Below are positions 15,687 through 49,609 of a DNA stretch of 64,000 nucleotides, piece after piece. Source of the stretch: Thiocapsa marina 5811 (GTDB taxonomy: Bacteria > Pseudomonadota > Gammaproteobacteria > Chromatiales > Chromatiaceae); contig NZ_AFWV01000006.1 in assembly GCF_000223985.1 (NCBI RefSeq), forward strand, positions 1-64,000, written 5' to 3'. The notes beneath the pieces were generated by a model. That model did not search any database. It worked only from the letters and a program-made list of their open reading frames with translations, and had not been told where the DNA came from. Position 1 is the stretch's first letter. Each line of letters starts with the position of its first letter. The position numbers were made by a program, and so were the translations under genes.

Positions 15687-15737
15687 GCTTGGTGAACCTA
15701 CTGGCTTAATGGGAAACGCTGGCTGGCGCCCAGTCGA

Positions 15738-18759: not shown

Positions 18760-18779
18760 GGGGACCGCCGCAAAACTGC

Positions 18780-19376
18780 CTAGGGCACCACGACGACATC
18801 ACCGGGCTGAAGCTTGATCACCTGCTCCGGACCCTCCCCGCGAATCGCGCTCCGATAGTCGAATGGATAGACCTGTTCCTTGCCGTCGACCTGCCGCAGC
18901 ACTCGAATCTCACGCTCCTTGGCGAAGGGCGTTAATCCGCCTGCCATCGAAAGCGCCTGCATCACGGTGACATCGCGCGAGATGATAGGGAAGTCTCCGG
19001 GATCATTGACGCGCCCGAGGACGTAAATCCGGTTCCCCGGTATTTCCTGCAGCGTGACGGTCACCACCGGCTCGGGGATGAAGCGCCTCAGCCTCGATTG
19101 GATCGATGCGCCCAGTTCTTCGACGGTCAGACCTTCGGCTCGCAGATCGCCTGCAAGCGGGAAAGAGACACCGCCGTCGGGCCGGACAAGAACGAGCTGT
19201 TCAAGGCCGGGTTCCTGCCAAACAGAGACGGCGACGACATCGCCCGGGCGCAGCTGGTAGCCAACGTCGCCCGTCTGCGCGAAAACCCCACCGCAACATA
19301 ACGCAAGCGCCAAACCAACGATACCCAGAACCGATGGACCTTTGTCCCTCCGCAGTCGAAACACACGCACCTCCAT
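18780..19376 (-). CDS. Short Wza-like polysaccharide export protein (OPX)
   Basis: A 198-residue periplasmic protein with a signal sequence (about residues 14-34, cleavage near VFAQ). It has the polysaccharide export domain (YQLRPGDVVAVSVWQEPGLE, then FPLAGDLRAEGLTVEEL) and one SLBB domain (IYVLGRVNDPGDFPI to the C-terminus, ending KLQPGDVVVVP). A clear lipobox is not seen. It lacks the extra SLBB repeat and the C-terminal amphipathic helix that form the pore in full-length Wza. First gene of the minus-strand export block. The start ATG at 19376 is the only sensible one. Confidence 0.87.
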   Translation of the reverse strand: MEVRVFRLRRDKGPSVLGIVGLALALCCGGVFAQTGDVGYQLRPGDVVAVSVWQEPGLEQLVLVRPDGGVSFPLAGDLRAEGLTVEELGASIQSRLRRFIPEPVVTVTLQEIPGNRIYVLGRVNDPGDFPIISRDVTVMQALSMAGGLTPFAKEREIRVLRQVDGKEQVYPFDYRSAIRGEGPEQVIKLQPGDVVVVP

Positions 19377-33564: not shown

Positions 33565-33713
33565 GAATTCAGCTCCTGACAATAAGGGCGTATCGGGTGT
33601 GGGGATCCGCCTTTAAAGCCAGATCCGGCATTTGACCGCTTCGTGCCGCATGCAAGGGTTTGACGTTGTTGACGATCGTGGTCATCGGATGACTCCCACG
33701 CCGGGTGAAGGCG

Positions 33714-34454
33714 CTACGACCCCTGGAGCACGCTCCGCGCGGCGCCCGACCCAAAGAACGAACGACGCAGAGCAAAATCTGTACGGTCCCAAGACACGGC
33801 GGCGATGAGGCCTTCGGTCAGCTCGACGGCGCGGACGCACCAGAACGCGGGTCCGATCGCGTTCGTGTTCGAATCGACCAACTGGCTCCCTTCCAAATGA
33901 CTTAGCGCCATCGATACCTGGTTCGGCGGCGCTGAAAGACCGGTGCCGATCGCCTTCAGCAAGGACTCCTTCAGGGTCCAGATCCGAAGGAAGGCATGGC
34001 TCCGGTCTTCGGGATCCAGCTTCAGCAAACCGATGCGTTCCTGCGCCGAACAGCAATCCCGTGCGAGCGCCATTACGTCTACGACTTGCCTCGCGACCTC
34101 CACATCGACCCCGAGTCGACCCTCCGGAGCGATGCCGATCAGGAGATGTCCGTCGCTGTGAGAGAGGTTGAAGGCGGGCCCCCCGAGCACGTCAGGCTTT
34201 CCGAACGGCTTGCCGACCCGTACGTCCAACGCCGCGGGATTCTTATCCATCAGATTCCCAAGCAAACCTCTCAATGCGCCTCGTCCAATCATAAACCGGC
34301 GTCGGTGCACGTGATCCCGGAATGCATTCGCTCTGGCCAGCTCCTGATCCGAGAGCACGGAAGTGATCCGCTCGACATCCAGACTCGAATCGTCCATGTC
34401 GGCATAGTAGAGGTCAACAGTGCCGCTGGCCGGGGTGAAGGGCGTCCAAAACAT
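33714..34454 (-). CDS. 4'-phosphopantetheinyl transferase (Sfp type)
   Basis: A 246-residue enzyme that moves phosphopantetheine from CoA to the conserved Ser of carrier proteins. The Sfp-type signatures are complete: FNLSHSDGHLLIGI, GVDVEVAR (Asp117, Glu119) and FLRIWTLKESLLKAIG (Trp159, Lys162, Glu163). The ATG at 34454 has GAGG upstream. It lies in the same direction as the PKS/NRPS genes and should activate the four carrier domains encoded between 36.5 and 49.6 kb. Confidence 0.92.
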   Translation of the reverse strand: MFWTPFTPASGTVDLYYADMDDSSLDVERITSVLSDQELARANAFRDHVHRRRFMIGRGALRGLLGNLMDKNPAALDVRVGKPFGKPDVLGGPAFNLSHSDGHLLIGIAPEGRLGVDVEVARQVVDVMALARDCCSAQERIGLLKLDPEDRSHAFLRIWTLKESLLKAIGTGLSAPPNQVSMALSHLEGSQLVDSNTNAIGPAFWCVRAVELTEGLIAAVSWDRTDFALRRSFFGSGAARSVLQGS

Positions 34455-34791: not shown

Positions 34792-35739
34792 CTAGACCGA
34801 GACCGCCCGAATCGCCGGCGGAACTTCAGGCTCAAGGCGCTGGCTGTGGTCACCTTCAAGCCACCTCAGCAATGCGGAAGCCAGCGCCTCCCGATGCGCG
34901 TCGCTCATGAAGGTATGAGAGGCCTCCGGAAAGAACAAGACCTCCGCATCCTCTTTCAAGTGCAACTCGGGATAGACGTGAAAGAGCTGCGTACGATAGT
35001 TGTAGATCTCGCTCCAGCCACCCGTGAAGGCGAAACACAACCGAACACCTCTTTCGCGCACTTCCCGCAGGCATTCGGAGATCTCGCGGCGATCTTGCAA
35101 GCCGATAGTGTAGAGCTCGGGTTCCTCGAGCCGCGCCAAGTCGCACGCAACGGGTTCCCGTCCCCGGACGCGATCACGCATGAGGCCGATCCAGCGATGT
35201 CGAAGCAAGACAAGACTCTTCCAGAAGTCGATCGAGGCGGCACGTTTCCAGACCTTGACCAAGTACCAGCGCTTGGTGCGAAATACCGTCGGATCGAGCA
35301 TCACCAGGCCAACAACGCGGCCGGCCTCGACACGGGCCGCCCGGAGTCCGTTGTCCGCACCCGAGCAGAGTCCCAGAAGGACGAACTCGCGTGTACCGCA
35401 GAGCCCTTCGAGAACATCGAGACACTCGGTGATATCCTGCAGGACACCTTCTTTGAGCGGCAGGCGATCCTGCCGGTTTGGACTGTCCCCGACCCCGGCA
35501 AAGTCAAAACGGAACGCGGTGTATCCATTCTCGGCAAAGCGACGCGCGAGAAAGGAATTCAGATTGTTCGGCCCGCTCTTGCGCACGACGCCGGCGTTTA
35601 GGATCACGACGCAGGGCGACCGACGCGCGGTCGCCGCTGAGCGATAGGAGAGAACACCCGTGAGGGGGGTGCTCCTCCCGAAATTCACCACACGTTCGCG
35701 GACACGGGTCTGAGGAGCCCTTTGAGTCTGATCCATCAT
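34792..35739 (-). CDS. Alpha/beta hydrolase with GxCxG nucleophile (exosortase hydrolase 1-like)
   Basis: A 315-residue alpha/beta hydrolase resembling the hydrolase 1 proteins found in exosortase A/EPS loci. AFRFDFAGVGDSP is the strand with the usual GxGxS loop. The nucleophile elbow is LLGLCSGADNG (residues 121-131), giving GxCxG with Cys125 rather than Ser. A late Asp candidate lies in the C-terminal third, and PEASHTFMSDAH supplies the His. The start at 35739 forms an ATGA overlap with the stop of the upstream hydrolase, so the two are translationally coupled. Placed directly after the NRPS genes, it may release or transfer the product, replacing the missing thioesterase. Confidence 0.75.
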   Translation of the reverse strand: MMDQTQRAPQTRVRERVVNFGRSTPLTGVLSYRSAATARRSPCVVILNAGVVRKSGPNNLNSFLARRFAENGYTAFRFDFAGVGDSPNRQDRLPLKEGVLQDITECLDVLEGLCGTREFVLLGLCSGADNGLRAARVEAGRVVGLVMLDPTVFRTKRWYLVKVWKRAASIDFWKSLVLLRHRWIGLMRDRVRGREPVACDLARLEEPELYTIGLQDRREISECLREVRERGVRLCFAFTGGWSEIYNYRTQLFHVYPELHLKEDAEVLFFPEASHTFMSDAHREALASALLRWLEGDHSQRLEPEVPPAIRAVSV

Positions 35740-36491
35740 CCGAGATCCGTGAGCCATCTCTTGATGACGCGGGTCGCCTGCGCCGGCAGCGGCGCCACGC
35801 CGACCTCGCTGTCGGCCTTCCAAGGTAACGCGTCCTGCACGACTTCGAATCTGCAACGCAGTTGATCTTGATCGAGCAACGATCCAAGCCGGCCGAATTC
35901 CGGCTGATGGGGCGAAGCAATAACGCCGACCTCGCAGCTCACTGCATTCAATGCGCATTCGAAACTCAGCTCCCTGATTTGATGGAGGTTTTCGTCAGCG
36001 ATCGGCAGTCCGCCGACGTTGCGACAACCGGCGTGTTCACCGATCGTGGCCTCAATCAATTCATTGCAATAGGTTGTGCCGTCGATGATCGGCTCCCAAG
36101 CGATGACCCCTTGGACGTCGGTGCGCTGTCGGGCAACGTCGAGGGCAAACAGGGCGCCGAGACGAATACCGATCAGGTGGACCGCATCAACCCCGCTAAT
36201 CGCCTTGAGCTCGTCGATGGCGGTCCCGATGTCCCGCGGGTGCTCCGAGATCCGCGTCTCTCGGGAATCGCCAGCCGAATCGCCCGTCGCACGGTAATCA
36301 AACCTCAGGCAGTGGATCCGTTCGCGCGAGAGGCTCTCGCCCAGGATGCGATAAGCCCACTGCGTCGCGATCGCCTCGTGCGCAAGCGGGCTGCAAAAGA
36401 CCACCCCTCGACCGGCATGCCCGACCGCGACCGCCGGATGATAGACACCGTATAGCTCCCGGCCCGTGGCCCCGAAGAAGAAAGGCAACAT
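35736..36491 (-). CDS. Alpha/beta hydrolase-like protein lacking Ser nucleophile (hydrolase 2-like)
   Basis: A 251-residue protein with the alpha/beta hydrolase layout. GVVFCSPLAHEA forms the oxyanion strand and loop, CLRFDYRATGDSAGDS is the GxGxS-type loop, and VHLIGIRLGALFALDVA is the elbow. Here the canonical GxSxG reads GIRLG, with Arg110 where the Ser should be. Related exosortase-locus proteins have the same GLRLG-like elbow, so this may be a family trait, not decay. ATG 36491 overlaps the NRPS stop by one base (TAATG). It may be a non-catalytic partner of the next hydrolase. Confidence 0.72.
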   Translation of the reverse strand: MLPFFFGATGRELYGVYHPAVAVGHAGRGVVFCSPLAHEAIATQWAYRILGESLSRERIHCLRFDYRATGDSAGDSRETRISEHPRDIGTAIDELKAISGVDAVHLIGIRLGALFALDVARQRTDVQGVIAWEPIIDGTTYCNELIEATIGEHAGCRNVGGLPIADENLHQIRELSFECALNAVSCEVGVIASPHQPEFGRLGSLLDQDQLRCRFEVVQDALPWKADSEVGVAPLPAQATRVIKRWLTDLG

Positions 36492-39289
36492 TACGCAGCT
36501 CGATCTCGAACAATCGCGTCTTTGGGGGCATACTCGGCGACCCGACGGAGCGATTGGAAGAACAGAAGCCTCGGCTCCACACGCCAGCCCAGACGCAACT
36601 GCATCTGCTGAATCACGCGGAGTGCCTGCAAAGAGGTTCCGCCCAACTCGGCGAAACTGTCGTGCGCGCCGATGCGTTCGGTCCCTAGGATGTCCGCCCA
36701 GATCTCGGCGATACTCTGCTCGGTACCGGCGCGAGGCAGCTCGAAACCGAGCATCCCCGGGGCGCCGAACGGATCCGGGAGACGCTCGCGGACGACCGAC
36801 CCATCGCTTCGCCGCGGTAGGGCCGGCACATCGACAATCAGCGTCGGACAGTGTCGCCCCGGCAGCAGGTCGGAGAGCGCGTCACGCAGGGACGTCGTCG
36901 TCTGCTCAGCACCGAACGACTGTTCGACCCAGACCAGCAGACGCGCCGCACCGGTGTCGGCCCGCCTGATCTCGACGTGTGCATCCACAACGCCGGGTTG
37001 CTCCGCGAGACGCCCTCGCAACCGATCGGCCAGCTTATAGAGTGTCGCTCGATCGTGCCAAGCCGTCACGCGAATGCGATCTGCGCTCAACCATCGACCG
37101 CGACATCCAGCCGGCACCCGCAGTTCGCCCTCCTCCTCGGGGGAGACACCCAGAACGATCTCACCGTCCACACCGATCGGACTGGCCCGGCCAAGCCGAT
37201 CTACAACCATCAACTCGACCGGCTCGAGCGGCTCGACACAAACCGCTCCGGATTCCGCTCTCCCCGCTGCAAAAAGGATCGGACCCTGATGCGTCTCGCT
37301 CGTCAGGACGTAATGGACGGCGGAAAACGAGCGGATCAGCTCTCTCAGGACCTCCGGGTGTGCATGCCGAGGATTCACGATCAATGTCGTGGCGCCAAGC
37401 ACGCGGGAATCCGTGTCGAGCCGGGACAAGGCCGCTGCCATCGGCACACCGGTCACGAGAACCTCGGGTGGGCAAGCGGAGATCTCCGAATAAAGGCTTC
37501 GCTCATCGTGCGCAGAGTATCGCGAGGGCGTCGAGGCGACTACCCCCGACCGAGCCGCGACCCGCTCGAAGATGCGGTAACCGGCGTCTCCGCCGCCCGA
37601 ATCGGCGATCATCAGTCGATCGCCCGGGCAGAGCCCAAGCATCCGCGCGAGCTGCTCGGCCTTCTCCTGCTCCGGTTTTCCGATCAGGGCCGGAACAGCG
37701 GCCGGGACGGGCACAACCGGAGGCGGGGTTCGGCCTGACGTGATCGCGCTCGACAGCGAGAGGGACATGTCGAGAAGCATCAAATCCGGCCGCGCCAACC
37801 CCTGCTCCAGCAGAGACAAGAGCCGATCGAGCAGCCGCGTGATCATGCCCTCGCTGAAGCGGTCGGCGCGATAACTCAGATCGACGGTCACCTCCCCCTT
37901 CGGAGTCTCGTCCATCCACAGGGCCAGATCGCCGTTGATGCCATGGGCATCCACGACCGGACCGGGCAGGATCAGAACCTCGCCCCAGGGATGCGGTCGG
38001 CCACCGGAGTGCCGATAGGTGAAATTCAGCTGAAAGAGACGACTGCGAGCCAGATCGACATCCAGCGCCTCGATGACGGACTCGGCCGCGCAATTCTGGT
38101 GCGCAAATCCGTCGAGTGCGATGTCTCTGACGTTCACGACATGGTCTTCGAAGCTCCGGCGCTCGTCGACCTCGAACCCGAGAAAGATGTGATTGGTGAA
38201 GGTTCCGATCAGCCGCTCGAGTTCCGGGCTGTCCCGCCCCTGCACCGTCGTGGTCACCACCAACGTCTCGGAGTCGCTGTAGCGCGATAGGAGGAGCACA
38301 TAGGCGGCGAGCCAGAGCATGAAGGGCGTGACGCCCGACCTCCTGCAGTAGGCATGCACGGCCGCCGACAAGGCACGGGGAATCTCGGCATGGATCCGTG
38401 CACCCCGTGCGACCGACTCACCCTCCGAATCGATATCCGCGGGCAACGGGTGCGGAGACAAATCGCCCGCGAGGCGGCCCTTCCAATAGGCGACTGCGGC
38501 ACGGGTATCCGGAGCTTCCTGGCGGAGTCGTTGCCAATAGGCGTAGTCGTCATACCGAAGCCGCAGCTCGGCGGGCATGACCGATGGCCTCCCGACAAAC
38601 TGCGTATAGAACTGACCGGTCTCGCGAACCAGGATCTCGAAGCTCGCCGCATCCCAGATAATCGCATGTGTCACGATGCCGAGCAGGTGCTCGTCCGAAC
38701 CCCACGAAACGAGATAAGCACGCAGAGCGGGCTCATTGGTCAGATCGAAGGGCACCATGGCGAGCGCCTCCATCCGGTCTCTCGCGATGGACTCGACCCG
38801 TTCCGACGGGTAGCCGGACAGGTCGATGCGCTCGAGCGTAAGACGGCAATCCTCCTCCGTGACGACCCGAGCTTCGCCCCCAGCGGCCGAGACGAAACGC
38901 GAGCGAAGGAGGCCATGACGCTCGCAGACAGCCTGCAGTGCACGCTCGAGGGCAGAGACGTCTAGCGTGCCCTGCAACCTCAGGGTGTCGCAAAGCGAAT
39001 ACCTGGGGTTTGCCGGATCCAACTGGCTCACTGTCCAAAGGCGCTCTTGGCTCGGAGACAGGCAACCGGTCGCTTCGGAGCTCGGCTCGGGCCCGCGGAC
39101 GTACCGCGTATCGGATCCATCCGAGATCTCGCTCAGGACAGCCAGGATTTCGGCCTTGTTGTCGCGGATGGCCGCGGCGAGCTCGGGGGTCAGGGCTCCG
39201 CTGGGCGCGTTGACGATCAGCCGATCTCCGGAGGGCTTTAGCCGGACATCGCGTTCGACAAGCAACGTCAACAAGTCGCCGACCTTCAA
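36491..39289 (-). CDS. Degenerate NRPS module: docking domain, C, vestigial A, PCP
   Basis: A 932-residue protein. Residues 1-50 form a TubC-type N-terminal docking domain (VGDLLTLLVERDVRLKPSGD). A condensation domain spans about 75-510, but its active site reads HAIIWDA (His208-Ala209...Asp213-Ala214) where HHxxxDG is expected. About 545-830 is an A-domain remnant without the TSGSTGxPKG, YGPTE or TGD motifs. The PCP (about 850-915) is intact, with Ser886 in LGGTSLQAL. The TTG at 39289 is the best start: AGGAG lies eight bases upstream, and TTGA overlaps the preceding stop. It likely receives a chain from the upstream NRPS through the docking domain and holds it for later enzymes. Confidence 0.82.
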   Translation of the reverse strand: MKVGDLLTLLVERDVRLKPSGDRLIVNAPSGALTPELAAAIRDNKAEILAVLSEISDGSDTRYVRGPEPSSEATGCLSPSQERLWTVSQLDPANPRYSLCDTLRLQGTLDVSALERALQAVCERHGLLRSRFVSAAGGEARVVTEEDCRLTLERIDLSGYPSERVESIARDRMEALAMVPFDLTNEPALRAYLVSWGSDEHLLGIVTHAIIWDAASFEILVRETGQFYTQFVGRPSVMPAELRLRYDDYAYWQRLRQEAPDTRAAVAYWKGRLAGDLSPHPLPADIDSEGESVARGARIHAEIPRALSAAVHAYCRRSGVTPFMLWLAAYVLLLSRYSDSETLVVTTTVQGRDSPELERLIGTFTNHIFLGFEVDERRSFEDHVVNVRDIALDGFAHQNCAAESVIEALDVDLARSRLFQLNFTYRHSGGRPHPWGEVLILPGPVVDAHGINGDLALWMDETPKGEVTVDLSYRADRFSEGMITRLLDRLLSLLEQGLARPDLMLLDMSLSLSSAITSGRTPPPVVPVPAAVPALIGKPEQEKAEQLARMLGLCPGDRLMIADSGGGDAGYRIFERVAARSGVVASTPSRYSAHDERSLYSEISACPPEVLVTGVPMAAALSRLDTDSRVLGATTLIVNPRHAHPEVLRELIRSFSAVHYVLTSETHQGPILFAAGRAESGAVCVEPLEPVELMVVDRLGRASPIGVDGEIVLGVSPEEEGELRVPAGCRGRWLSADRIRVTAWHDRATLYKLADRLRGRLAEQPGVVDAHVEIRRADTGAARLLVWVEQSFGAEQTTTSLRDALSDLLPGRHCPTLIVDVPALPRRSDGSVVRERLPDPFGAPGMLGFELPRAGTEQSIAEIWADILGTERIGAHDSFAELGGTSLQALRVIQQMQLRLGWRVEPRLLFFQSLRRVAEYAPKDAIVRDRAA

Positions 39290-42200
39290 AACGCCAGCTC
39301 CTCCCGCTCGCTTCCCTCGACATCGACCGGGTGCTCGGCCAGCTTCATGAGCGTCGAGATGTGCGCCGCAAGCGCTTCGAGCCGTGAATTCTCGAAGAGC
39401 CGCCGCAGCGGCAACTGGATGCCCAGCTCGTCGCGCAAACGCGCGATCACGCGCGCTGCCAAGATCGAGTGACCACCGAGTTCGAAGAAATCGTCGGCGA
39501 TCCCGGGCTCTTCGATGGAGAGGACATCCTGCCAAATGGCGGCCAGAGCGCGCTCGGCTTGGGTACGAGGCGCCACGCGTGCAATGCGTTCTGCCCCGGC
39601 CTGAGCGGGGGCCGGCAATGCCTTGCGATCCGCCTTGCGATTCGGCGTCAGCGGGATGGCATCCAGTTGAGTGAACTGGTTAGGTAACATGTACTCTGGA
39701 AGGAATACGGCAAGCTGTTCGCGGAATCGCGCAGCGGGAATCTCCGAACCGTCCCGGGCGACATAGTACCCCACCAAGCGGCTGTCCCCCGGGCCGGCCT
39801 CATATACGGCGGCGACCGCCTCGGCGACGCCCTCGCAACGCAACATGGCCGCTTCGACCTCGCCGAGCTCGAGGCGGAAACCCCGAATCTTGACCTGGGC
39901 ATCGAGACGGCCGAGGTACTGCAAGGTCCCGCCGCGACGCCAGCGCACGAGATCCCCCGTACGATAGAGTCGTTCGCCGTCTTTGAACGGGGACATCACG
40001 AACCTGTCGCGCGTCAGGTCCTCACGGTTGTGGTAGCCCTCGGACACGCCGGCACCGCCGATGAAGAGTTCTCCGGCCACCCCGACGGGTGCCAGTTGCA
40101 TCGCATCCGACAGAACGAACATCCGAGTGTTCGCGATGGGGGTCCCGATCGACGCGATCGGCTCGACCTTGCGGACTTGGTGAACCGAAGACCAAACGGT
40201 CGTCTCGGTCGGGCCGTACATGTTGTAGAGCCTGTCTGTCCGCTCGATCAGTCGGGCTGCAAGCTCTCCGGACAGTGCTTCGCCGCCACATAGGGCAGTG
40301 AAGGGCCGCGATGGGCGCCAGCCCGATTCGATCAAGAGCGTCCAAGTGGCCGGTGTCGCCTGCATCATCGTCGCACCCGATGTCTCGAGCAGGTCACAAA
40401 GCGCCGCTCCGTCCCGTGTCTGCTCTCGACTGGCCACCAGTGTCGTGGCCCCCACAGTGAGTGGAAGAAACAGCTCGAGCAACGAGATGTCGAAGGATAG
40501 AGTGGTGACCGCGAGCAGGATGTCCTGCGGCTGGAGCCCGGGGCGCTGGGCCATCGCACCCAGAAAATTGGCGAGGTTGCGGTGCAAGACCCTGACGCCC
40601 TTGGGTTGTCCCGTCGAGCCCGAGGTGTAGATGATATAGGCGAGGTCATCGGGGCGAGACGTGTTGGGTGGTGCGATTGGCTCCATCTCCGACAAGGTCT
40701 CTGACTCGGCATCGAGCAGCAATGTCGAGACACCCTCAAGCGGCAGACGCGGCGCCAGACCACTCGTCGAGACCACTAAGCGAACCTCGGCGTCGTCGAT
40801 CATGAAGCGCAGACGATCCGGAGGAAAATCAGGATCCAGCGGTACGTAAGCCCCACCCGCTTTCCAGATGGCGAGCGCCGCCACGACCATGTCGGCATCA
40901 CGCTCGAGTGCGATACCGACCAGCGAGCCACGACCCACATCCAAGCGTTGCAAGGCACTCGCAAGTCGGTTCACCCGATCCAGCAAAGCTTGGTAATTGT
41001 AGACCGTGCCCGGTGCGATGAGTGCCGTCGCATGGGGACTGTGGGCACACTGAGACTCCACCATTTCGTGTACGTGCACCGACAGATCCAAGTCCGCCTC
41101 GGTGGCGTTCCAGGTGTCGATCAGACGGGTCCTCCAGTCGCTCGGAACGACAGGCAGCCTTTCGATGGTTTCCGTGGGTTCGGCCACCACCCCCGCCATC
41201 AGAGTCTCGAATTCTCGCAGCCTGTCTCGGATGCCCTCCTCTTCGAACAAGTCGGAGTTGAACTGACACTCGATCCGAATGCCGTCTTGGACCTTTGTTA
41301 GGTTCAAAAACAGCTCGAAGTTCTCGAAACTACGGGGGTTATTGTTGACTTGAACCTCGATGCCGGAAAAGCCCTCGGTCACGATGCCCGCGGGATCGAC
41401 GTTGAACTGCACGGGTACCAACGGTATCCGGCTAGGGTCACGCGGAATCGGCAACGACTGCAGAAGACTTCCGAACGTAAAGTCTTGATGCTCTAAGGCA
41501 TCGAGAACCTTCTCCCGCGTGAGGGCCACCAAGGACTCGAACGACATCGAAGGAAGAATCGCGACGCGAATGGGCAACAGGTTCACACAGTGCCCGACCA
41601 GTCCGTGGATTCCCGATGCATTCTGTCCCGCCGCCGGCATACCGGTCACCAAGTCGGTTGCACCCGTGATACGGTGGAGGTACGCCATCCATCCCGAGAA
41701 GAGCAACACAACAAGACTGGCCCGACAGCGACCCGCGACCTCGTTGAGCCCGGCCACGAGATCGCTGTCGAAGAGATGATCGACCCGTCCCGAACGGAAG
41801 GTTCGGAAGGAAGGCCGGGGCTTGTCCGTGGGCAAATCGAGTGCCGGAAGGGACTCCTTGAACTGCTGAACCCAATAGTCGCGCGACTTGGCCCTATCTT
41901 GCGTCCTGAGGAAGCTGAGATATTCCGAAAACGCCGGCGCGGCCTCGAGGGGCCTAATTGCGCGACCGCAAAGATCATCGTAGAGCAGGCCGAGCTCGCA
42001 GGTCATGACGAAGCTGGACCAGCCGTCGCAGACGATATGATGAGCGGTGACGACGAGGACCTGATGACGTTCGGACATCCTCAGGATCGAGAAGCGATAC
42101 AAGGGGCCATGCTCGAGATCGAAAGGGGTCTCCACTTGGCGAACGCAATATGCACGAAGCGCGGCTTCCGGATCCGGCTCGGTCGACAGATCCAATCTCG

Positions 42201-42486
42201 CGATCTCGGGCCTGAACGAATCGACGATGCAGAGCAGCTCGCCGTCGGGGCTGAAGGTCGTCCGCATCGACTCGTGCCTGACGACAAGACGCTCGATCGC
42301 CAGTGCGAGCGCATCCGGCTGCAGGTCGCCGTGCAGGTGGATATGGATCGACTCGTTGAAGGCGCAGGAGGCGTCGTCGCCCAGCTGAGCGGCCGCCCAA
42401 ATCTCCTTCTGGGCCTCGGTCGCCGGCAAAGTGCTGGTCAACATCCCGTCGGCGAAGGGATCGTAGTCGATGGGCGTGGCTTTCAT
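39286..42486 (-). CDS. NRPS module C-A-PCP, predicted glycine
   Basis: A 1066-residue module. The condensation domain (about 18-440) has an intact HHIVCDG at 149-155. The adenylation domain (about 475-975) has YTSGSTGQPKG, NMYGPTETTV, YRTGDLVRW and NRKADRKAL. Its pocket residues, read by alignment with GrsA, are Asp666, Ile667, Leu670, Gln709, Leu732, Gly734, Met756, Val764 and Trp765. This is very close to the DILQLGLIW pattern I know for glycine. The PCP has Ser1007 in LGGHSIL. No epimerase or thioesterase. ATG 42486 follows GAGGAAGAG. It should add glycine to the chain made by the PKS. Confidence 0.9.
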   Translation of the reverse strand: MKATPIDYDPFADGMLTSTLPATEAQKEIWAAAQLGDDASCAFNESIHIHLHGDLQPDALALAIERLVVRHESMRTTFSPDGELLCIVDSFRPEIARLDLSTEPDPEAALRAYCVRQVETPFDLEHGPLYRFSILRMSERHQVLVVTAHHIVCDGWSSFVMTCELGLLYDDLCGRAIRPLEAAPAFSEYLSFLRTQDRAKSRDYWVQQFKESLPALDLPTDKPRPSFRTFRSGRVDHLFDSDLVAGLNEVAGRCRASLVVLLFSGWMAYLHRITGATDLVTGMPAAGQNASGIHGLVGHCVNLLPIRVAILPSMSFESLVALTREKVLDALEHQDFTFGSLLQSLPIPRDPSRIPLVPVQFNVDPAGIVTEGFSGIEVQVNNNPRSFENFELFLNLTKVQDGIRIECQFNSDLFEEEGIRDRLREFETLMAGVVAEPTETIERLPVVPSDWRTRLIDTWNATEADLDLSVHVHEMVESQCAHSPHATALIAPGTVYNYQALLDRVNRLASALQRLDVGRGSLVGIALERDADMVVAALAIWKAGGAYVPLDPDFPPDRLRFMIDDAEVRLVVSTSGLAPRLPLEGVSTLLLDAESETLSEMEPIAPPNTSRPDDLAYIIYTSGSTGQPKGVRVLHRNLANFLGAMAQRPGLQPQDILLAVTTLSFDISLLELFLPLTVGATTLVASREQTRDGAALCDLLETSGATMMQATPATWTLLIESGWRPSRPFTALCGGEALSGELAARLIERTDRLYNMYGPTETTVWSSVHQVRKVEPIASIGTPIANTRMFVLSDAMQLAPVGVAGELFIGGAGVSEGYHNREDLTRDRFVMSPFKDGERLYRTGDLVRWRRGGTLQYLGRLDAQVKIRGFRLELGEVEAAMLRCEGVAEAVAAVYEAGPGDSRLVGYYVARDGSEIPAARFREQLAVFLPEYMLPNQFTQLDAIPLTPNRKADRKALPAPAQAGAERIARVAPRTQAERALAAIWQDVLSIEEPGIADDFFELGGHSILAARVIARLRDELGIQLPLRRLFENSRLEALAAHISTLMKLAEHPVDVEGSEREELAF

Positions 42487-42528
42487 GTATCTCTTCCTCG
42501 AAAAGTACCCTTGCCGGAGCGATCTCGC

Positions 42529-45500
42529 CTAGGTGATCAGCAGATATGCGCCGGGACGATCCGGGTCAGGGGCGTACCAGGCAGGGTTGCCCCGAGGATC
42601 CTTACCCAATCTGGCTCCGGGAACAGGCGGCCTGAGCGTGCTTGCAGGAATACCCTCTTCGGCCTGCGTGACCTTGGCTGAATGGAGCATCCCGTCGGCG
42701 ATCATGCGCTCGATACTGAGACGGAATCCCTCGACGAGTCGATCGATGTCGTCCGGCGTATGCGAGGCTGTCATGTATGTGGGGAAGCCCTCGAGCGCGA
42801 ACACGCCATGATGACGAAGATAGTACCAGAGCAGGGATCCGAGCTCGCTCTTGTCCCGATTGCGCAGATACATGATGGATGTAAAACACGGCATCTCGAA
42901 GGGAATGTCGTAGTTCTTGAAGAGCGTATTCACCCGTGCGACGAAACCCTCTGTGGTCATTGAGACGCGACGCTGGAGTTGCGGTCCCTCGCGTTTGAGG
43001 ATGTTCAGCATTGCGTGCGATGCCGCGATCGCAAAGGGCTGCCGGACGAAGGTACCGGCGAAAAAGGTTACGCCCGCCTCCGGCGAAGAATCGTCCCCGT
43101 AAGCCCAGGTACCGCCGTCGAAGGTATCCATCACGGCCCGCCGTCCCGCGACGATCCCAAGCGGAAGGTTGCCCCCCGCAACCTTGCCGTAGGTCGCAAG
43201 ATCGGCGCGCACGCCGAAATGGGCTTGCGCACCGCCCGGGTGACAGCGAAAACCGGTCACGACCTCGTCGAAGATCAGGAGGGCACCCTTGCTTTGCGTG
43301 ATGCTCCGCAAACGATGCAAAAACTCACGAGGCTGCAGCTCAGGCCTCCTGCTCTGCACAGGTTCGACCAGCACGGCTGCGACCTGGTCGCCGATCTCTT
43401 CGATGATCGACAAGGCACTGTCGTGACCGTACTCAAGCACGATCACGTTGGCGACGCTTTCCCGCGGGATTCCCGGAGCGGAAGCCAGGGTCTTCAGGTA
43501 ACCCCCGCTCGCCAATCCACGAACCAAGACCTCGTCGAAATTCCCGTGATAGTCACCCCGAAACATGACGATCTTGTCGCGTTGCGTGTAGGTTCGGGCG
43601 CACCGAATCGCCGCCTGAACCGCCTCTGAACCGGTACAGACGAAGCTCGCCCGATCCATGCCCGTCAGCTCGCAGACCAGCTCTGCGGTCTCGCCGGCGA
43701 GGCGCTGCTGGGGTCCGATCTCGAACCCGCGGGACATCTCGCGGCCGATAGCCTCCGTGACCTCGGGATGGGAATGCCCGAGGAAGTTCGGGCCGAAGCC
43801 GTTCAGGAGGTCGATATACTCGTTGCCGTCCAGGTCCCAGAGCCGGGCGCCGGAAGAGCGCTCGCAAACGATCGGATAGACGATCTCTTTCCATACCCGG
43901 TGAAATCCGGCTGCGGTTCGCGGATCCGCATGATGTTCGCGATAACGCGCGATGTGTGCCTTGGAGGCAGCCGTTCGTGCACCGTGCTCCTGGATAAACG
44001 TCCGCAGAGCGGCTTGGCGTCTCGGATCCAAATCATCCCAACTGCCCACGCCGGTCGGCCGATCGTCATCCGGATCCCGGGGTAATTTGCCGGGGTAAAG
44101 GCTATCCGGATCGATGTCGGGCGCCTTGATCGCCAAGCCCTCCGACCGGGTCCCGAGGTTGGCCACCGACGGCGCGGTCGTCATTGTCGCTGCAGGCACA
44201 GCCGCGGACTGACCGCCCGCAAGCAGCTCCAATTGGCGGCCCATCAGGCGGAGCTGCTCCGACACAAGTACCTCGAGCTGCGTTCCGCTCTGCAGAAACC
44301 CGCCGGGGGATGGTGAGACAGAGGCAGGCACGGACGCTGCAACGCTTGCCGTCGGCGGGACCGGTAGTGGCGTCGGCGGGGGCACAGTCACCGGCGTGGC
44401 TTCCGGCGGGATCAGTCCTGCCAGATGCCGGGCCAGGGCCTGCAACGAATCCAAATCTCCACTGAGTTGCCGAAAGGAAACCGGGACGGCGAATTCCCGA
44501 TTGATCGCGGCACTGATTTGGGTCATGAATAAGGAGTCGAATCCGAGCGCCATGAAGGACTGCCCGGTGTCGCTCTTGCGAAGATCCATACCGGAGACGT
44601 CCTCGAAGAGCTCAATGACACGCTCGAGGATCCGTGCGTCGTGTTCCTGGGTATTCAGCATCTCGGGCGACTCTGTGACTGCTGCCCCGGCCGGTTCGGC
44701 GGGAACAACGGGGGCTTGTTGATCGGATCGCTCAGGCGTCGGGTATCCCGGGTCGATCCAGTGACGCTGGCGCTCGAAGGGATAGGTGGGAAGACTCACG
44801 CGCGCTCGGGTCTCGCCTTCGAACATCCCAGCCCAGTCCAGGTCGGCCCCATTGACCCAAAGTCGAGCCAACGCGACCATGACCGACTCCGGCTCAGAAA
44901 CGCCACGTGTTCCCAGGGCCGCTGCAAAGACATGCCCGCCGTCGGATTGGCGCTCCGCGAGCGAGGTCAAGGTTCCCCCCGGACCGAGCTCGATCATTCC
45001 GCATCGCCCTACGGCCAGCAATGTCTCCAGCGCGTGGGCGAAACGGACGGGGACACGGAGCTGGGACTGCCAGTATCGGGGCGACACGGCCTGCTCGTCC
45101 GTCAGCATCTCCCCGGTTACGGTGGAGACGATCGGGATCTGCGGGGGCCTCAGCACCACTCGGGACAGGACCTCGCCGAGCGCCTCGACTGCCGGATCCA
45201 TCATCTCGGAATGAAAGGCGTGTGATGTCCGCAAGCGGGTGCAGCGAATTCCCCGAGCGTCAAGCTTACGCTCGGCCGCATCGACTTGCTCCGGCCGCCC
45301 GGCCAGGACCGTCAAATCGGGCGCGTTCGATGCCGCGATGCTCAAACCGAGCTCCGCACCGGCAACGGCGGCATCCGCCTCGCCAAGACCCACCGCAAGC
45401 ATGGCACCTGCCGGCATGGCGTACATCAGGCGCCCGCGCTCGATAATCAGGCGCATCGCGTCGCTCGGCGTCATGACCTCCGCGAGGGCCGCTGCCACGA

Positions 45501-47400
45501 ACTCGCCGACACTATGACCGATCATAACGTCGGGACGGACACCGAGGCTCCCCAAATATCGCGCCAACGCGAATCCGATGGCGAACAATGCAGGCTGCGT
45601 ATAACGGGTTTGCTCGAGCAGCCCGGCCGCTCGATCCTCTGACTCCGCGGCGATCGTCAGCTCGCGTAGATCGATATCGAGCTCGCGGTCCGCTACCAGA
45701 AAACATTCATCCATCGCCGCCCGAAACGCCGGTTGACGACGGTAGAGCTCAGCGCCCATCCCGGGGCGCTGCGCCCCTTGGCCGGGAAACGCAAAGGCCA
45801 GCCTTCCCGGCGGCGAATCTGCACGCCCGACGACGACACGCGGGCCCCGACCGGATCGAAGCGCACGGACCATCTCGACGGCGTCTTCCGCCACAGCCGC
45901 AAGCCGATAGTCGTAGAAAGATCGACCGACGGCCAATGTGTAGGCGACGTCACCGAGATTCGGCGGCAGCCGATCCTCCAAGCGCTCCGCCAGCGCACGC
46001 GCCGATTGTTCTGGACCGGCTTGGTGGCGGGCGCTGAGGAGCGCCACAGGCACCGCCGTGTCTGCGTCGCTCGGGGTGAGCAGCGGCGCCTGCTCGATGA
46101 TGACGTGCGCGTTGGTACCGCCGACGCCGAACGAGCTGACGGCGCCGCGTCGGGGTGATTGCTCCGAGATCCAGGCATGGGTCTCGGCCGAGACACGAAA
46201 CCGGGTGCGTTCAAGGTTCAGAGCTGGATTGGGCTCACGAAAATGCAGGGTGCCCGGAATAACGCCCTGCTCTACGGCGAGCGCGACCTTAATCAACCCC
46301 GCGGTTCCCGCCGCATGGATCATGTGGCCGACATTGCTCTTGAGGGCGCCCAGCACGCAGGATCCCGGCCCCGCAGTTGCAGAGCGCTCGTAGACTTGGC
46401 TCAGGGCCTCAACCTCGATGGGATCGCCCAAGGGTGTTGCCGTTCCGTGCGTTTCGATGAAGGTGACGCTGTCCGGGTCGAGGTTCGCGGCGGCAAGCGC
46501 GGTTGCAATGACCTCGGCTTGGCCGGTCACGCTAGGCGCCGTAAAGCTCATCTTATCGGAGCCGTCGTTGTTGATGGCCGCGCCGCGGATCACTGCATAG
46601 ATGTGGTCGCGATCCGCGACAGCGTCTTCAAGACGCTTCAGTAGCACCAGCGCGGCGCCCTCGTTGAAGGTCGTACCGGTGCTGGACGCATCGAACGTGC
46701 GGGTATGCCCGTCCTTGGACAGCATTCCACCCTCTTGGTACATGTAACCCCGACGCTGCGGCAGGCTCACCGAGGCTCCGCCGGCGAGCGCCATCTCGCA
46801 CTCGTAGCTTAAGAGGCTCTTGACGGCCTCCGAGACAGCAACTAGCCCGGTCGAGCATGCGGTGAACAGGCTGACACTGGGTCCCTTGAAGTTGAGTTTA
46901 TAAGCGATCCTGGTCGCCGGAAAATCGGCCTCGTTCGCCAACGCGGCGTTGAACTCGCCGTAACGGTCCAACAGCGAGGGGTTGCTCGCCAGGTTGAGCT
47001 CCATGTAACGGTTCCAGTTGGTCCCGACATAGACCGCAATCTTCTCGGGCCGACGATCAGAGCCGTAACCCGCATCTTCAAGCGCTGCCCAAGCGAGCTC
47101 AAGCAAGATGCGCTGCTGCGGATCGAGCATCCTGGCCTCGGCCGGCGGGATACCGAAAAACGACGCGTCGAAAAATTCGACACCGTCCAGGAGTCCCTTT
47201 GCCCGGACATAGCTCGGGTCGTCTACAGGGTATGCGCTGTCGCGATCCAGCTCCTCGGGCGAGAAGAATGTGATGGATTCCTGGCACTCCAGCAGATTCC
47301 GCCAGAACTGGCGCGCATCGGACGCGCCGGGAAAGCGCCCGGACATACCGATAATTGCAATTGAATCAGGCGGTAAGATGTCATTCCGATTCTGAGACAT
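42529..47400 (-). CDS. PKS module KS-AT-ACP fused to an aminotransferase
   Basis: A 1623-residue hybrid. The ketosynthase (about 11-440) has Cys182 in TACSTG, His318 in ETHGTA and His359 in SNVGHM. The acyltransferase (about 535-850) has GHSVGE (Ser630) and HAFH (727-730), which favours malonyl-CoA. The ACP (about 925-995) has Ser956 in LGFDSLFM. After a Pro/Ala/Ser linker, a class III PLP aminotransferase of the glutamate-semialdehyde type (about 1160-1565) has FDEVVTGFR (Asp1378) and PLP Lys1406 in TYGKVAGG. No reductive domains. The order matches McyE/MycA-type modules, in which a beta-keto chain becomes a beta-amino chain. It lies 42 bp before the glycine NRPS. Confidence 0.92.
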   Translation of the reverse strand: MSQNRNDILPPDSIAIIGMSGRFPGASDARQFWRNLLECQESITFFSPEELDRDSAYPVDDPSYVRAKGLLDGVEFFDASFFGIPPAEARMLDPQQRILLELAWAALEDAGYGSDRRPEKIAVYVGTNWNRYMELNLASNPSLLDRYGEFNAALANEADFPATRIAYKLNFKGPSVSLFTACSTGLVAVSEAVKSLLSYECEMALAGGASVSLPQRRGYMYQEGGMLSKDGHTRTFDASSTGTTFNEGAALVLLKRLEDAVADRDHIYAVIRGAAINNDGSDKMSFTAPSVTGQAEVIATALAAANLDPDSVTFIETHGTATPLGDPIEVEALSQVYERSATAGPGSCVLGALKSNVGHMIHAAGTAGLIKVALAVEQGVIPGTLHFREPNPALNLERTRFRVSAETHAWISEQSPRRGAVSSFGVGGTNAHVIIEQAPLLTPSDADTAVPVALLSARHQAGPEQSARALAERLEDRLPPNLGDVAYTLAVGRSFYDYRLAAVAEDAVEMVRALRSGRGPRVVVGRADSPPGRLAFAFPGQGAQRPGMGAELYRRQPAFRAAMDECFLVADRELDIDLRELTIAAESEDRAAGLLEQTRYTQPALFAIGFALARYLGSLGVRPDVMIGHSVGEFVAAALAEVMTPSDAMRLIIERGRLMYAMPAGAMLAVGLGEADAAVAGAELGLSIAASNAPDLTVLAGRPEQVDAAERKLDARGIRCTRLRTSHAFHSEMMDPAVEALGEVLSRVVLRPPQIPIVSTVTGEMLTDEQAVSPRYWQSQLRVPVRFAHALETLLAVGRCGMIELGPGGTLTSLAERQSDGGHVFAAALGTRGVSEPESVMVALARLWVNGADLDWAGMFEGETRARVSLPTYPFERQRHWIDPGYPTPERSDQQAPVVPAEPAGAAVTESPEMLNTQEHDARILERVIELFEDVSGMDLRKSDTGQSFMALGFDSLFMTQISAAINREFAVPVSFRQLSGDLDSLQALARHLAGLIPPEATPVTVPPPTPLPVPPTASVAASVPASVSPSPGGFLQSGTQLEVLVSEQLRLMGRQLELLAGGQSAAVPAATMTTAPSVANLGTRSEGLAIKAPDIDPDSLYPGKLPRDPDDDRPTGVGSWDDLDPRRQAALRTFIQEHGARTAASKAHIARYREHHADPRTAAGFHRVWKEIVYPIVCERSSGARLWDLDGNEYIDLLNGFGPNFLGHSHPEVTEAIGREMSRGFEIGPQQRLAGETAELVCELTGMDRASFVCTGSEAVQAAIRCARTYTQRDKIVMFRGDYHGNFDEVLVRGLASGGYLKTLASAPGIPRESVANVIVLEYGHDSALSIIEEIGDQVAAVLVEPVQSRRPELQPREFLHRLRSITQSKGALLIFDEVVTGFRCHPGGAQAHFGVRADLATYGKVAGGNLPLGIVAGRRAVMDTFDGGTWAYGDDSSPEAGVTFFAGTFVRQPFAIAASHAMLNILKREGPQLQRRVSMTTEGFVARVNTLFKNYDIPFEMPCFTSIMYLRNRDKSELGSLLWYYLRHHGVFALEGFPTYMTASHTPDDIDRLVEGFRLSIERMIADGMLHSAKVTQAEEGIPASTLRPPVPGARLGKDPRGNPAWYAPDPDRPGAYLLIT

Positions 47401-47719
47401 ATTGAATTCGCGTCATCCTTAAGTCGTTTTCCGACATCCGACATGATAGACGATGCCTTGACCAACACCTTTACTTCCAGCGTTACCGAGGCGGTCATAC
47501 CATCGCCGCCAGAAGGCACCAAGCAGCGCCACTTCGACCGCAATTTCTAGCCACGGAGGCTGCAGCCGCGTTGAGCGCATCTCTTGTCGTCTCGAACCCA
47601 TCTCCCAGGCTTCGAACGCTACGACGGGCCAAACCGGAGGGATTCGTCACCATCGCCGATGGCTTGCATCCGGCTGGCCTACTGTCAATGCTACCAATCC
47701 ATCGCTCAACGCTGCCAAT
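47401..47719. other. Intergenic gap in the PKS/NRPS cluster
   Basis: 319 bp between the A-PCP gene and the PKS gene. No gene seen; the PKS gene could have its own promoter here. Confidence 0.4.
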
Positions 47720-49609
47720 CTATCGCTTGCCACGGCGACGCTCGCGCGCCTCTCGTGCACGGGCCGCTCGGCGCTCGGCCGCCTCCAAATGTGAAGAACC
47801 AGTCGCGCCTGCGAGGTACGCTGCAAGTCGATCGACGGAAGGGAACTCGAACAACTTGATCACGGGTATCGGTCTGTCGAGCTCACGACTCAGTCGAGCC
47901 GCCACTTGGAGGGTACCGAGAGATGTTCCACCGACTTCGAAAAAGCTATCTGTCCTTGAAAACCGGCTGCCGGACGGCAGCACGAGACGCCACAAACCTT
48001 CGATAAGGTCGGGAACCGTCGACCAAGACAACTGCGCATCCATTAAGGAGCCGTGCCCATCCATCGGGGCAGGCATATCGCCCTCGAACGGGTTCGGCAG
48101 GCGGGATTCATCCAGCTTGCCGTTCTGGTTGAGCGGCATGTATGCCAGCCGTTCCACCCTCGAAGGAACGACTGCCGCAGGAAGTTTTCGGGCCAAAAGA
48201 TCTTGCAAATCATCAACGTCGACACCGTCGGCAAGGTAGTAGGCTACGAGATGTTTATCGCCGCTACCGTCCAGCTGCACCCGCACCTTCGCGTCGGTCA
48301 CTCTAGGGTGAGACAACAAGAGATTCTCGATCTCACCGAGCTCGATGCGATTGCCGCGGATCTTGACCTGAGTGTCATTGCGCCCGAGGTAGTCGAGCAG
48401 TCCATCGCCGAGGTCCTTAACCAAATCACCGGTCTTGTACATCAGATGGCCTGGCTCACCGATGAAGGGGTCCGGAACGAAGCGCTCGGCCGTGAGCTCG
48501 GGCTTGTTAAGATAACCCTGAGCGACACCGTAGCCCCCGACGAAGAGTTCACCCACCTCTCCCGGCCTCACGGGCTCGCCCGTCTCGTTAAGTACGTAGG
48601 TCGTGGTTCCCGCGATAGCCCGCCCGATAGGAATCGACGTCCAGTGATCCGGTATCGGCCGGGGAATTTTGTAGCAGGTACTGATATGGTTCTCGGTTGG
48701 CCCGTAGGCATTAAAGAGCACTAGATTGGGCAAAGCGGCCTGGGCCAACCGGATATGAGGCGCAGACAGCGCTTCGCCTCCGACGAAGATCGCCTCGATT
48801 CCCGAGAGCACTGTGGGATCGATGCTGACAATACTGTTGAAGAGTGAAGTCGTAAGCCAGGTTGTTGTAACCCGATAGCGCTGGATGACTTCCCGAAGCA
48901 GCTCAAGGTCAGGGACCCCGTGCTGTGGGAAAAGGACGCTCTGCCCACCGTGCAGCAAACCGCCGAAGAGTTCGAGAATGGAGACATCGAAAGTCAATGC
49001 ACTGAGCTGCAGGAACACCCGACCCGAGTTGAACTCGTAATAGTCCGCATCACACAGGAGCCTGATCAGGCTCCGATGCGGCAGAACAACCCCCTTGGGG
49101 GTTCCCGTCGAACCGGAGGTGTACATCACGCAGGCAGGTCGCTCGGGATCGCTTTCGGGAACGCCAATGGAGCCGGTATCGTGAGCGAACGATTCCGGCA
49201 TTAATCGATAGGTTTCCCCCGCGAAGTCTATTTCCATCGAACGATCCACCAGCACCAGTCCCGGTGAGGCGTCCTGAAGCATGTAGGCAATCCGGTCTCT
49301 CGGGAAACGAGGATCGATCGGTAGATACGCAGCTCCGAGCAGCATCGCGCCAAGATAGGATGCGACGGTCTCAAGTTGTCGGTCCGCAATGACCGCGACG
49401 ATATCCCCGGCACCGACGCCACGGGCCTCGAACTGCGCCGCAGCCGATATGGCGCGATCTCTGAGCTCCCGATATGTCAAGCTCGTGGGCGCAGCGGGAT
49501 CAGCGAAAACCAAAGCCGCCTTATCCGGAAAATCCGCCGCTGCCCGTTCGAACATGTCCCATAACGTAACGGCCGCGGGGACTGTGCACGTGAAGTTGTG
49601 TATTGGCAT
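47720..49609 (-). CDS. Free-standing NRPS adenylation-PCP protein
   Basis: A 629-residue loading protein. The adenylation domain (residues 15-510) has YTSGSTGTPKG, FNAYGPTENHI, YKTGDLVKD and NQNGKLDESRL. Pocket residues by position are Asp208, Val209, Leu212, Trp251, Phe275, Gly277, Ala301, Ile309 and Ser310; Asp208 indicates an alpha-amino acid, but I do not recognise the code. The PCP (about 530-600) carries Ser563 in VGGTSLGTL. A very basic Arg-rich tail follows. No C domain is present, so it probably loads the first residue and passes it to the KS of the PKS encoded just downstream. Confidence 0.9.
   Translation of the reverse strand: MPIHNFTCTVPAAVTLWDMFERAAADFPDKAALVFADPAAPTSLTYRELRDRAISAAAQFEARGVGAGDIVAVIADRQLETVASYLGAMLLGAAYLPIDPRFPRDRIAYMLQDASPGLVLVDRSMEIDFAGETYRLMPESFAHDTGSIGVPESDPERPACVMYTSGSTGTPKGVVLPHRSLIRLLCDADYYEFNSGRVFLQLSALTFDVSILELFGGLLHGGQSVLFPQHGVPDLELLREVIQRYRVTTTWLTTSLFNSIVSIDPTVLSGIEAIFVGGEALSAPHIRLAQAALPNLVLFNAYGPTENHISTCYKIPRPIPDHWTSIPIGRAIAGTTTYVLNETGEPVRPGEVGELFVGGYGVAQGYLNKPELTAERFVPDPFIGEPGHLMYKTGDLVKDLGDGLLDYLGRNDTQVKIRGNRIELGEIENLLLSHPRVTDAKVRVQLDGSGDKHLVAYYLADGVDVDDLQDLLARKLPAAVVPSRVERLAYMPLNQNGKLDESRLPNPFEGDMPAPMDGHGSLMDAQLSWSTVPDLIEGLWRLVLPSGSRFSRTDSFFEVGGTSLGTLQVAARLSRELDRPIPVIKLFEFPSVDRLAAYLAGATGSSHLEAAERRAARAREARERRRGKR

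What the first reader, a model, noticed from the sequence alone, without database searches (positions are those of the whole stretch)
36491..49609. PKS-NRPS line with built-in aminotransferase inside a surface-glycan locus
Seen: gene order A-PCP, KS-AT-ACP-aminotransferase, C-A-PCP, docking-C-A-PCP, all on one strand and mostly overlapping or close, with exporter, glycosyltransferase and sulfotransferase genes on both sides. Known: aminotransferase-fused PKS modules of McyE/MycA type turn a beta-ketone into a beta-amine. Inference: the line builds a small amino-acyl, C2-extended, beta-amino-Gly unit, and the neighbours suggest that it decorates or is joined to a surface polysaccharide. I know of no described system with exactly this set, but I cannot search.
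Basis: partly seen in the sequence, partly recalled or inferred. Interest (0 to 1): 0.85.

Follow-up and report, generated by a model that had tools for sequence, protein, structure and literature searches.

The report
Peptide line with sugar-coat release pair
A purple sulfur bacterium carries a small PKS-NRPS line that probably builds an amino-acyl glycine unit, and it is followed, as in distant relatives, by a pair of hydrolase-like proteins related to ones from exopolysaccharide loci, which suggests that the product is joined to a surface sugar chain.

Summary
The line is real: A-PCP, KS-AT-ACP-AMT, C-A(Gly)-PCP, then a terminal module. One element was misread. That terminal "C-A-PCP" is a pseudo-module: its A domain has lost the core motifs and its C domain the second His, while its PCP is 81% conserved between two Thiocapsa species. 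The AMT is MycA-type.

The missing piece lies just downstream: two alpha/beta-hydrolases related to exosortase-A hydrolases 2 and 1 (below cut-off). hydr1 has a nucleophile Cys in 62 of 62 homologues; hydr2 has Arg there in 62 of 64. The pair directly follows PKS/NRPS lines in several Proteobacteria and Desulfoluna, with hydr2 fused to the line in 8 places. In 14 of 19 lines the last active A domain reads as glycine.

The glycan link holds partly. In Thiocapsa the line and a close EPS block occur together in 2 of 11 genomes. Wza lies within 30 kb in 7 of 17 genomes, plus HTCC2143. Near flanks elsewhere are often not glycan genes.

Best reading: a Val-like/beta-amino/Gly unit moved by hydr1 onto an exported polysaccharide. 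The acceptor is unproven.

The parts
47720..49609 (-). Loader A-PCP; A code DVLWFGAIS (T. imhoffii DVLWLGGIS, HTCC2143 DAFWLGGTF): probably aliphatic, Val-like
   Evidence: Pfam PF00501 + PF00550; codes (positions and meanings recalled); best solved match linear gramicidin synthetase LgrA
42529..47400 (-). KS-AT-ACP-AMT polyketide synthase module with class-III aminotransferase
   Evidence: Pfam; catalytic motifs; AMT best solved match MycA aminotransferase 6kfm, E 1.4e-116
39286..42486 (-). C-A-PCP, glycine-type A domain (DILQLGMVW), intact HHIVCDG
36491..39535 (-). Terminal pseudo-module: TubC-type docking region, C domain lacking the second His, degenerate A remnant, highly conserved PCP (true start probably near 39289, inferred)
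35736..36491 (-). hydr2-like alpha/beta-hydrolase, Arg at the nucleophile elbow (GIRLG); relative of TIGR03101
   Evidence: TIGR03101 76.8 bits, cut-off 202.75; elbow alignment
34792..35958 (-). hydr1-like alpha/beta-hydrolase, nucleophile Cys (GLCSG); relative of TIGR03100; true start probably 35736-35739 (inferred)
   Evidence: TIGR03100 63.7 bits, cut-off 168.45; Cys in 62 of 62
33714..34454 (-). 4'-phosphopantetheinyl transferase, HetI-like
   Evidence: PF01648; NF042922 120 bits, cut-off 370; conserved in T. imhoffii
32521..33582 (-). Family 2 glycosyltransferase next to the PPTase
   Evidence: PF00535
30162..32078 (+). fn3/dockerin-like protein; T. imhoffii has a PKD/fn3 ORF at the comparable place, at its contig end
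   Evidence: weak hits (just below cut-offs)
13148..19376 (-). XrtA-like EPS export block: Wzy, tyrosine kinase, chain-length determinant, outer-membrane protein, Wza-type exporter
   Evidence: same order at the start of T. imhoffii contig C8
21303..22910 (-). Family 1 glycosyltransferase of the EPS block
   Evidence: 64% identity over 367 aa in T. imhoffii C8
55595..57633 (-). Wzt/Wzm-type polysaccharide ABC exporter
   Evidence: PF14524, PF01061
57748..61629 (-). Three family 2 glycosyltransferases

Best explanation
A short hybrid line makes a small basic acyl-glycine unit. Step 1: the loader A-PCP charges an aliphatic, Val-like amino acid (inferred from code). Step 2: the KS-AT-ACP adds one malonate (domains shown, activity inferred). 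Step 3: the MycA-type aminotransferase turns the beta-ketone into an amine, giving a 3,4-diamino acyl chain (inferred from family). Step 4: C-A-PCP adds glycine (code shown, activity inferred). Step 5: instead of a thioesterase, the terminal pseudo-module, with a degenerate C and A and an intact PCP, presents or recruits the paired hydrolases; hydr1 (Cys enzyme) takes the glycyl thioester and hydr2 (Arg pseudo-enzyme, fused to the line in some relatives) docks it on the line (inferred). Step 6: hydr1 transfers the acyl-glycine to an acceptor on the polysaccharide made and exported by the flanking EPS genes (inferred). The predicted decoration for a Val starter is about +199.13 Da, or +256.15 Da if a second Gly is loaded in trans (calculated by hand).
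For: Line and motifs; MycA AMT match; Gly code. Pair of hydr2+hydr1 in 8 of 79 named PKS-homologue loci, next to the line, and hydr2 within 203 bp of a PCP in 11 of 56 TIGR03101 places read from a 370-genome class sample. hydr2 in the same open frame as the line in 8 places: L171, L174, L176, L178, L182, L185, L040, L042. Cys 62/62 and Arg 62/64. 19 of 21 line-linked hydr1 rows plus one other form a set with support 100/90. Last active A glycine-type in 14 of 19 lines. Wza within 30 kb in 7 of 17 genomes, 0.71 expected, P 2e-6; thinned 5 of 12, P 4e-5 (proximity flags entered by hand); 0 of 10 contigs with other condensation domains in those genomes carry Wza. HTCC2143 line beside XrtA-type export genes over cut-off. 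Line plus a close (59%), continuous chain-length match in 2 of 11 genus genomes, neither in the other 9.
Against: No acceptor or product is shown. Close flanks of many loci lack glycan genes (2 of 112 ORFs Glycos_transf_2); 10 of 17 genomes have no Wza within 30 kb. Six of the 9 genus genomes without the line have a weaker, split chain-length match (42-50%), and G017 of the same family has a continuous 42% match without the line. T. imhoffii's line and EPS block lie on different contigs; adjacency is inferred from matching order at contig ends, and the other flank of its line is housekeeping. Hydrolase scores are far below the XrtA cut-offs; the genome has no exosortase hit. 5 of 19 lines do not end in glycine.
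Confidence: 0.45

Rival explanations
1. A diffusible small metabolite (for example a protease inhibitor or signal) is made by the line; hydr1 is its type II-like thioesterase, and the EPS genes are only neighbours in a variable genome region.
For: 71 of 79 PKS-homologue loci show no such pair in the stretch fetched, which is short for some. 10 of 17 pair-bearing genomes have no Wza within 30 kb. Transposases and sulfotransferases mark a variable region.
Against: No type I TE. The pair is of an exosortase-A-associated kind. Co-occurrence with the EPS block and the Wza excess are not explained. No receptor or resistance gene appeared among the 40 window proteins scanned with Pfam.
Confidence: 0.33
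2. The acyl-glycine is joined to a lipid or a surface protein rather than to a polysaccharide, with the flanking fn3/dockerin-like protein or a membrane lipid as acceptor.
For: An fn3-type gene lies near the line in both Thiocapsa species.
Against: No such neighbour was sought in the other lineages one by one; the flank clusters shared by three or more loci and the tally of 112 flank ORFs (which does show 2 members with PKD domains) do not make it a rule.
Confidence: 0.12
3. The terminal module is still functional in trans: the upstream Gly A domain loads its PCP and the altered C domain still condenses, so the product ends Gly-Gly. (This concerns the product, and may hold together with the best explanation.)
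For: Relatives L018, L037 and L040 have two successive Gly-type modules before hydr2. The terminal PCP is 81% identical between species, against 53% for C and 36% for the A core.
Against: The second His of the C motif is Ala/Ser here and is also missing in the terminal C domains of L022 and L042, by separate events on the tree.
Confidence: 0.25

Closest known systems
MycA of mycosubtilin synthetase (and, recalled, McyE-type) aminotransferase-fused PKS modules
   Same: GSAM-like class III aminotransferase fused behind the ACP of a PKS module; best solved match of the AMT is MycA; MycA transaminates a beta-ketothioester with Gln as donor (PMC3870968, passage seen)
   Different: Amino-acid A-PCP loader instead of a fatty-acyl loader (MycA loader recalled); no type I TE; EPS-type hydrolase pair downstream
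Exosortase A (XrtA/PEP-CTERM) system hydrolases 1 and 2 (TIGR03100, TIGR03101)
   Same: Adjacent pair; Cys in hydr1 and Arg in hydr2 at the elbow in both groups
   Different: Far below curated cut-offs; other side of the hydr1 tree; follows a PKS-NRPS line; no exosortase hit in the genome
Thiocapsa marina 5811 F9UAS6 entry in the 2013 survey PMC3870968
   Same: KS-AT-CP-PLP1 protein; predicted Nrp-Nrp-Mal-Gly; may be this very genome (guess, not tested)
   Different: The table row seen names no hydrolase or glycan gene; the word polysaccharide does not occur in the main text
Burkholderia cenocepacia Bcam1330-1341 EPS cluster (PMC3584217)
   Same: A TIGR03100-family hydrolase gene (Bcam1334) inside an EPS cluster supported by transposon mutants, beside an acyltransferase gene (passages seen)
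   Different: No PKS/NRPS line in the gene table seen; the authors suggest a quality-control role for the hydrolase
DltA/DltC-type D-alanylation (recalled)
   Same: A carrier-bound amino-acyl group made to be attached to a surface polymer
   Different: Single A domain and carrier; different transfer enzymes

Membership tests
MycA-type aminotransferase PKS module | KS, AT, ACP and class III AMT in one polypeptide | tested here: met
MycA-type aminotransferase PKS module | AMT nearest to MycA AMT and PLP-lysine motif present | tested here: met
   6kfm E 1.4e-116; YGKVAGGN
MycA-type aminotransferase PKS module | Fatty-acyl starter (recalled as typical) | tested here: not met
   Amino-acid-type A-PCP loader with Asp at the first code position
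MycA-type aminotransferase PKS module | Beta-ketothioester transamination | not testable with these tools
   needs enzyme assay
XrtA hydrolase 2 / hydrolase 1 (TIGR03101 / TIGR03100) | Curated score cut-off | tested here: not met
   76.8 of 202.75 and 63.7 of 168.45 bits
XrtA hydrolase 2 / hydrolase 1 (TIGR03101 / TIGR03100) | Paired genes with Arg (hydr2) and Cys (hydr1) at the elbow (signature found here) | tested here: met
XrtA / PEP-CTERM system | Exosortase gene in the genome | tested here: not met
   No TIGR02602 match at E 0.001 in G000
XrtA-type EPS export set | Curated scores of TIGR03007, TIGR03018, TIGR03027 | tested here: not met
   225 of 278.85, 133.3 of 230.65, 124.8 of 180 bits
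Standard NRPS with type I thioesterase release | C-terminal TE domain with GxSxG | tested here: not met
   No TE hit in the last module; Cys and Arg at the elbow of the following hydrolases
Functional C-A-PCP terminal module | A-domain core motifs and C-domain HHxxxDG | tested here: not met

The most novel reading that the evidence does not exclude
A Cys alpha/beta-hydrolase and its Arg pseudo-enzyme partner form a dedicated off-loading and transfer apparatus that couples PKS/NRPS assembly lines to exopolysaccharides. Bacteria in several lineages would thereby decorate their sugar coats with line-made acyl units, often ending in glycine, in some cases through a terminal C domain that lost its second His by separate events and now serves as a docking platform.
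Probability: 0.35. Interest if true: 0.88.

Novelty: new variant of a known kind. Interest (0 to 1): 0.7.

Why it matters
If true, assembly-line products would be building blocks of extracellular polysaccharides, not only free metabolites, and a little-studied family of EPS-linked hydrolases (TIGR03100/TIGR03101 and relatives) would gain a testable job: taking acyl groups from carrier proteins. The Cys/Arg signature and the fusions to assembly lines give a simple genome-mining handle and a direct in vitro test.

Tried and rejected
Rejected: a working terminal C-A-PCP (no A motifs, no second His). Rejected: membership in XrtA proper (scores, no exosortase hit). Rejected: a glycan function for PKS-AMT lines in general, since 71 of 79 homologous loci show no pair in the stretch fetched (up to 10 kb each side, less for many) and a Wza profile found L022 and L034 only (tblastn adds a kinase match in L023). 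Rejected: the cupin gene (51114-52010) as a core part; no match in the T. imhoffii stretches fetched.

Led nowhere: the Pfam tally of flank ORFs was weak for glycan genes. 112 of 115 selected ORFs were given; I left out one fragment at a locus edge and two ORFs between NRPS genes. It shows 25 of 151 families, so rarer ones are unseen. The promoter/terminator scan found fewer sites than shuffles.

Literature (ten searches): 35 and 36 returned nothing; the listings of 39, 50, 51, 69, 71, 72, 94 and 97 showed no paper on this combination, but 51 listed 20 of 37 and 94 listed 10 of 4,457. Passages only were seen of PMC3870968 and PMC3584217; word counts of PMC1569441 and PMC8205485 found nothing useful. 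The library holds open-licence papers only, so absence from it is weak evidence.

Dropped before counts: the second hydr2 place in G398 was not fetched (56 of 57 places read). L167 was left out of the glycine count because its line lies on the other side of the pair. L184 is probably an unrelated Ser hydrolase but is counted in 62 of 64. L040's truncated hydr1 was left out of alignment A2. HTCC2143 was not held for the whole-genome searches. One of the 17 genomes (G077) has no Wza at all.

Full report
WHAT IS THERE. The window is the first 64,000 bases of a 319,905-bp contig (C57) of a 5.59 Mb genome. The nearest named relative with the whole line is Thiocapsa imhoffii (L011). It is most likely the genome held as G005 of the same genus, whose contig C7 has the same length of 178,312 bp, so the host is taken to be a Thiocapsa-like member of the Chromatiaceae. 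Pfam confirms A-PCP, KS-AT-ACP-AMT, C-A-PCP and TubC-C-PCP on the minus strand. T. imhoffii has the same genes in the same order, followed by hydr2, hydr1 and a PPTase. KS Cys/His/His, AT GHSVGE with HAFH, ACP GFDSL, AMT YGKVAGGN and three PCP serine motifs are present (motif meanings recalled).

THE TERMINAL MODULE IS A PSEUDO-MODULE. The last protein has no AMP-binding hit. In its A region only the C-terminal subdomain is recognisable, and A3, A5, A7, A8 and A10 are missing in both Thiocapsa species. Its C motif reads THAIIWDA (THSIIWDA in T. imhoffii), so the second His, recalled as the catalytic one, is missing. Of 30 C-domain rows 27 have letters at the motif and 5 of these lack that His: the two Thiocapsa terminal ones, the terminal ones of HTCC2143 (L022) and MC-03 (L042), and L185. 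On the tree this label needs 4 changes, so it arose more than once, though some branches are long. Between the two species the identity is 53% for C, 36% for the A core and 81% for the PCP, so the carrier is kept while the catalytic parts decay.

CHEMISTRY. The AMT is closest to the MycA aminotransferase (6kfm, 1.4e-116), which transaminates a beta-ketothioester (PMC3870968, passage seen). The C-A-PCP code is DILQLGMVW, a glycine code (recalled). The loader code DVLWFGAIS (DVLWLGGIS in T. imhoffii) resembles the HTCC2143 loader DAFWLGGTF, a valine-type code (recalled), and its best solved match is LgrA. The predicted product is a 3,4-diamino-acyl-glycine. PMC3870968 lists F9UAS6 of Thiocapsa marina 5811 as KS-AT-CP-PLP1 with predicted Nrp-Nrp-Mal-Gly; that this is the window's genome is a guess. 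So such a line in Thiocapsa is already in print; the points below were not seen in that paper's passages.

THE HYDROLASE PAIR. The two genes after the line hit TIGR03101 (76.8 bits, cut-off 202.75) and TIGR03100 (63.7, cut-off 168.45), the exosortase-A-associated hydrolases. In the aligned homologues, hydr1 has Cys at the elbow in 62 of 62 and hydr2 has Arg in 62 of 64; the exceptions are L018 (Gly) and L184 (Ser, probably unrelated). TIGR03101 was sought in 370 class genomes: 51 had a match at E 1e-12 or better, 25 of them over the cut-off. Of 57 places 56 were read; a PCP ends within 203 bp upstream of hydr2 in 11, all below the cut-off, and in 6 of these hydr2 is in the same open frame. Named loci add L011, L018, L022, L037, L040, L042, L045 and L059 (8 of 79 PKS-homologue loci), with hydr2 in the same frame in L040 (after PCP) and L042 (after C). 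On the hydr1 tree of 62 rows, 19 of 21 line-linked rows plus one other (L169) form a set with 100/90 support; L168 and L170 fall just outside it, and long branches make some places unsure. In 14 of 19 lines the last active A domain reads as glycine; L042, L173, L176, L178 and L182 do not. L018, L037 and L040 have two Gly-type modules in a row, so the Thiocapsa terminal module may be a decayed second Gly module.

GLYCAN LINK: FOR. The left block (Wzy, kinase, chain length, outer-membrane protein, exporter) resembles XrtA sets but is below the cut-offs. T. imhoffii has the same block in the same order at the very start of contig C8, while its line ends near the end of C7, next to a PKD/fn3 ORF comparable to the window's fn3-like gene; adjacency is inferred. 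A close chain-length match (59%, continuous) occurs in the genus only in the two genomes that have the line. HTCC2143 has its line between TIGR03027/TIGR03007 genes over their cut-offs and a TIGR03019 FemAB gene over its cut-off, with GNAT and membrane acyltransferase genes between the export genes and the line. Wza lies within 30 kb of the line in 7 of 17 genomes (G000, G188, G353, G405, G406, G408, G409), against 0.71 expected (P 2e-6; thinned 5 of 12, P 4e-5; distances read by hand). In the same genomes 0 of 10 contigs with other NRPS condensation domains have a Wza gene; some may be short, and one of these genomes (G077) has no Wza at all. A TIGR03100 gene lies in an EPS cluster of B. cenocepacia supported by mutants in other genes of the cluster (PMC3584217, passages seen).

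GLYCAN LINK: AGAINST. Ten of 17 genomes show no Wza within 30 kb. Of 112 flank ORFs from 17 loci only 2 matched Glycos_transf_2, 4 Polysacc_synt_3 and 3 Epimerase (25 of 151 families shown). Six of the 9 genus genomes without the line have a weaker, split chain-length match of 42-50%, and G017 of the same family has a continuous 42% match without the line. The other flank in T. imhoffii is housekeeping. The window genome has no exosortase hit. No product, acceptor or activity is known.

VERDICT. The line is genuine and its chemistry is of a known type. The unexpected part is that its release machinery appears to be a Cys/Arg hydrolase pair of an EPS-linked kind, shared with and sometimes fused to other lines, and that a glycine end is common. 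Attachment to polysaccharide is the best single reading (0.45), with a free metabolite as the main rival (0.33).

Noticed in passing
L172, L175, L180, L183 (hydr2-hydr1 between about 5.9 and 12.6 kb): A third setting of the Cys/Arg pair: hydr2 and hydr1 in one open frame beside genes that in L172 are GH2-like, acyl-CoA-dehydrogenase-like and DUF1839 (homologues in the other three), with no carrier protein found by my profiles.
   Followed up: partly
G000:C57:65.9-73.9 kb (L101:3897-11856): Just right of the window: NAD synthase, PrmC-like methyltransferase, a TIGR03098-like ligase (460 bits, cut-off 592), asparagine synthase, HprK-like and PqqD-like genes, perhaps a separate peptide-modification set.
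   Followed up: partly
G000:C59, about 301-325 kb: A second PKS/NRPS cluster with frames of 2533, 2004 and 1568 aa.
   Followed up: no
window 533-25914: Four sulfotransferase genes (533, 20303, 23577, 24901), suggesting a sulfated polymer.
   Followed up: no
window 2734-4266, 11334-12575, 27335-28360: Three insertion-sequence type transposase genes lie in the left part of the locus.
   Followed up: no
L022:4711-5556: HTCC2143 carries a second hydr1-like gene next to its export block, apart from the one after the line.
   Followed up: no
L135, about 8.2-12 kb: A canonical-type (over cut-off) pair preceded by a C-like and an A-type domain, a possible intermediate between the two settings.
   Followed up: no
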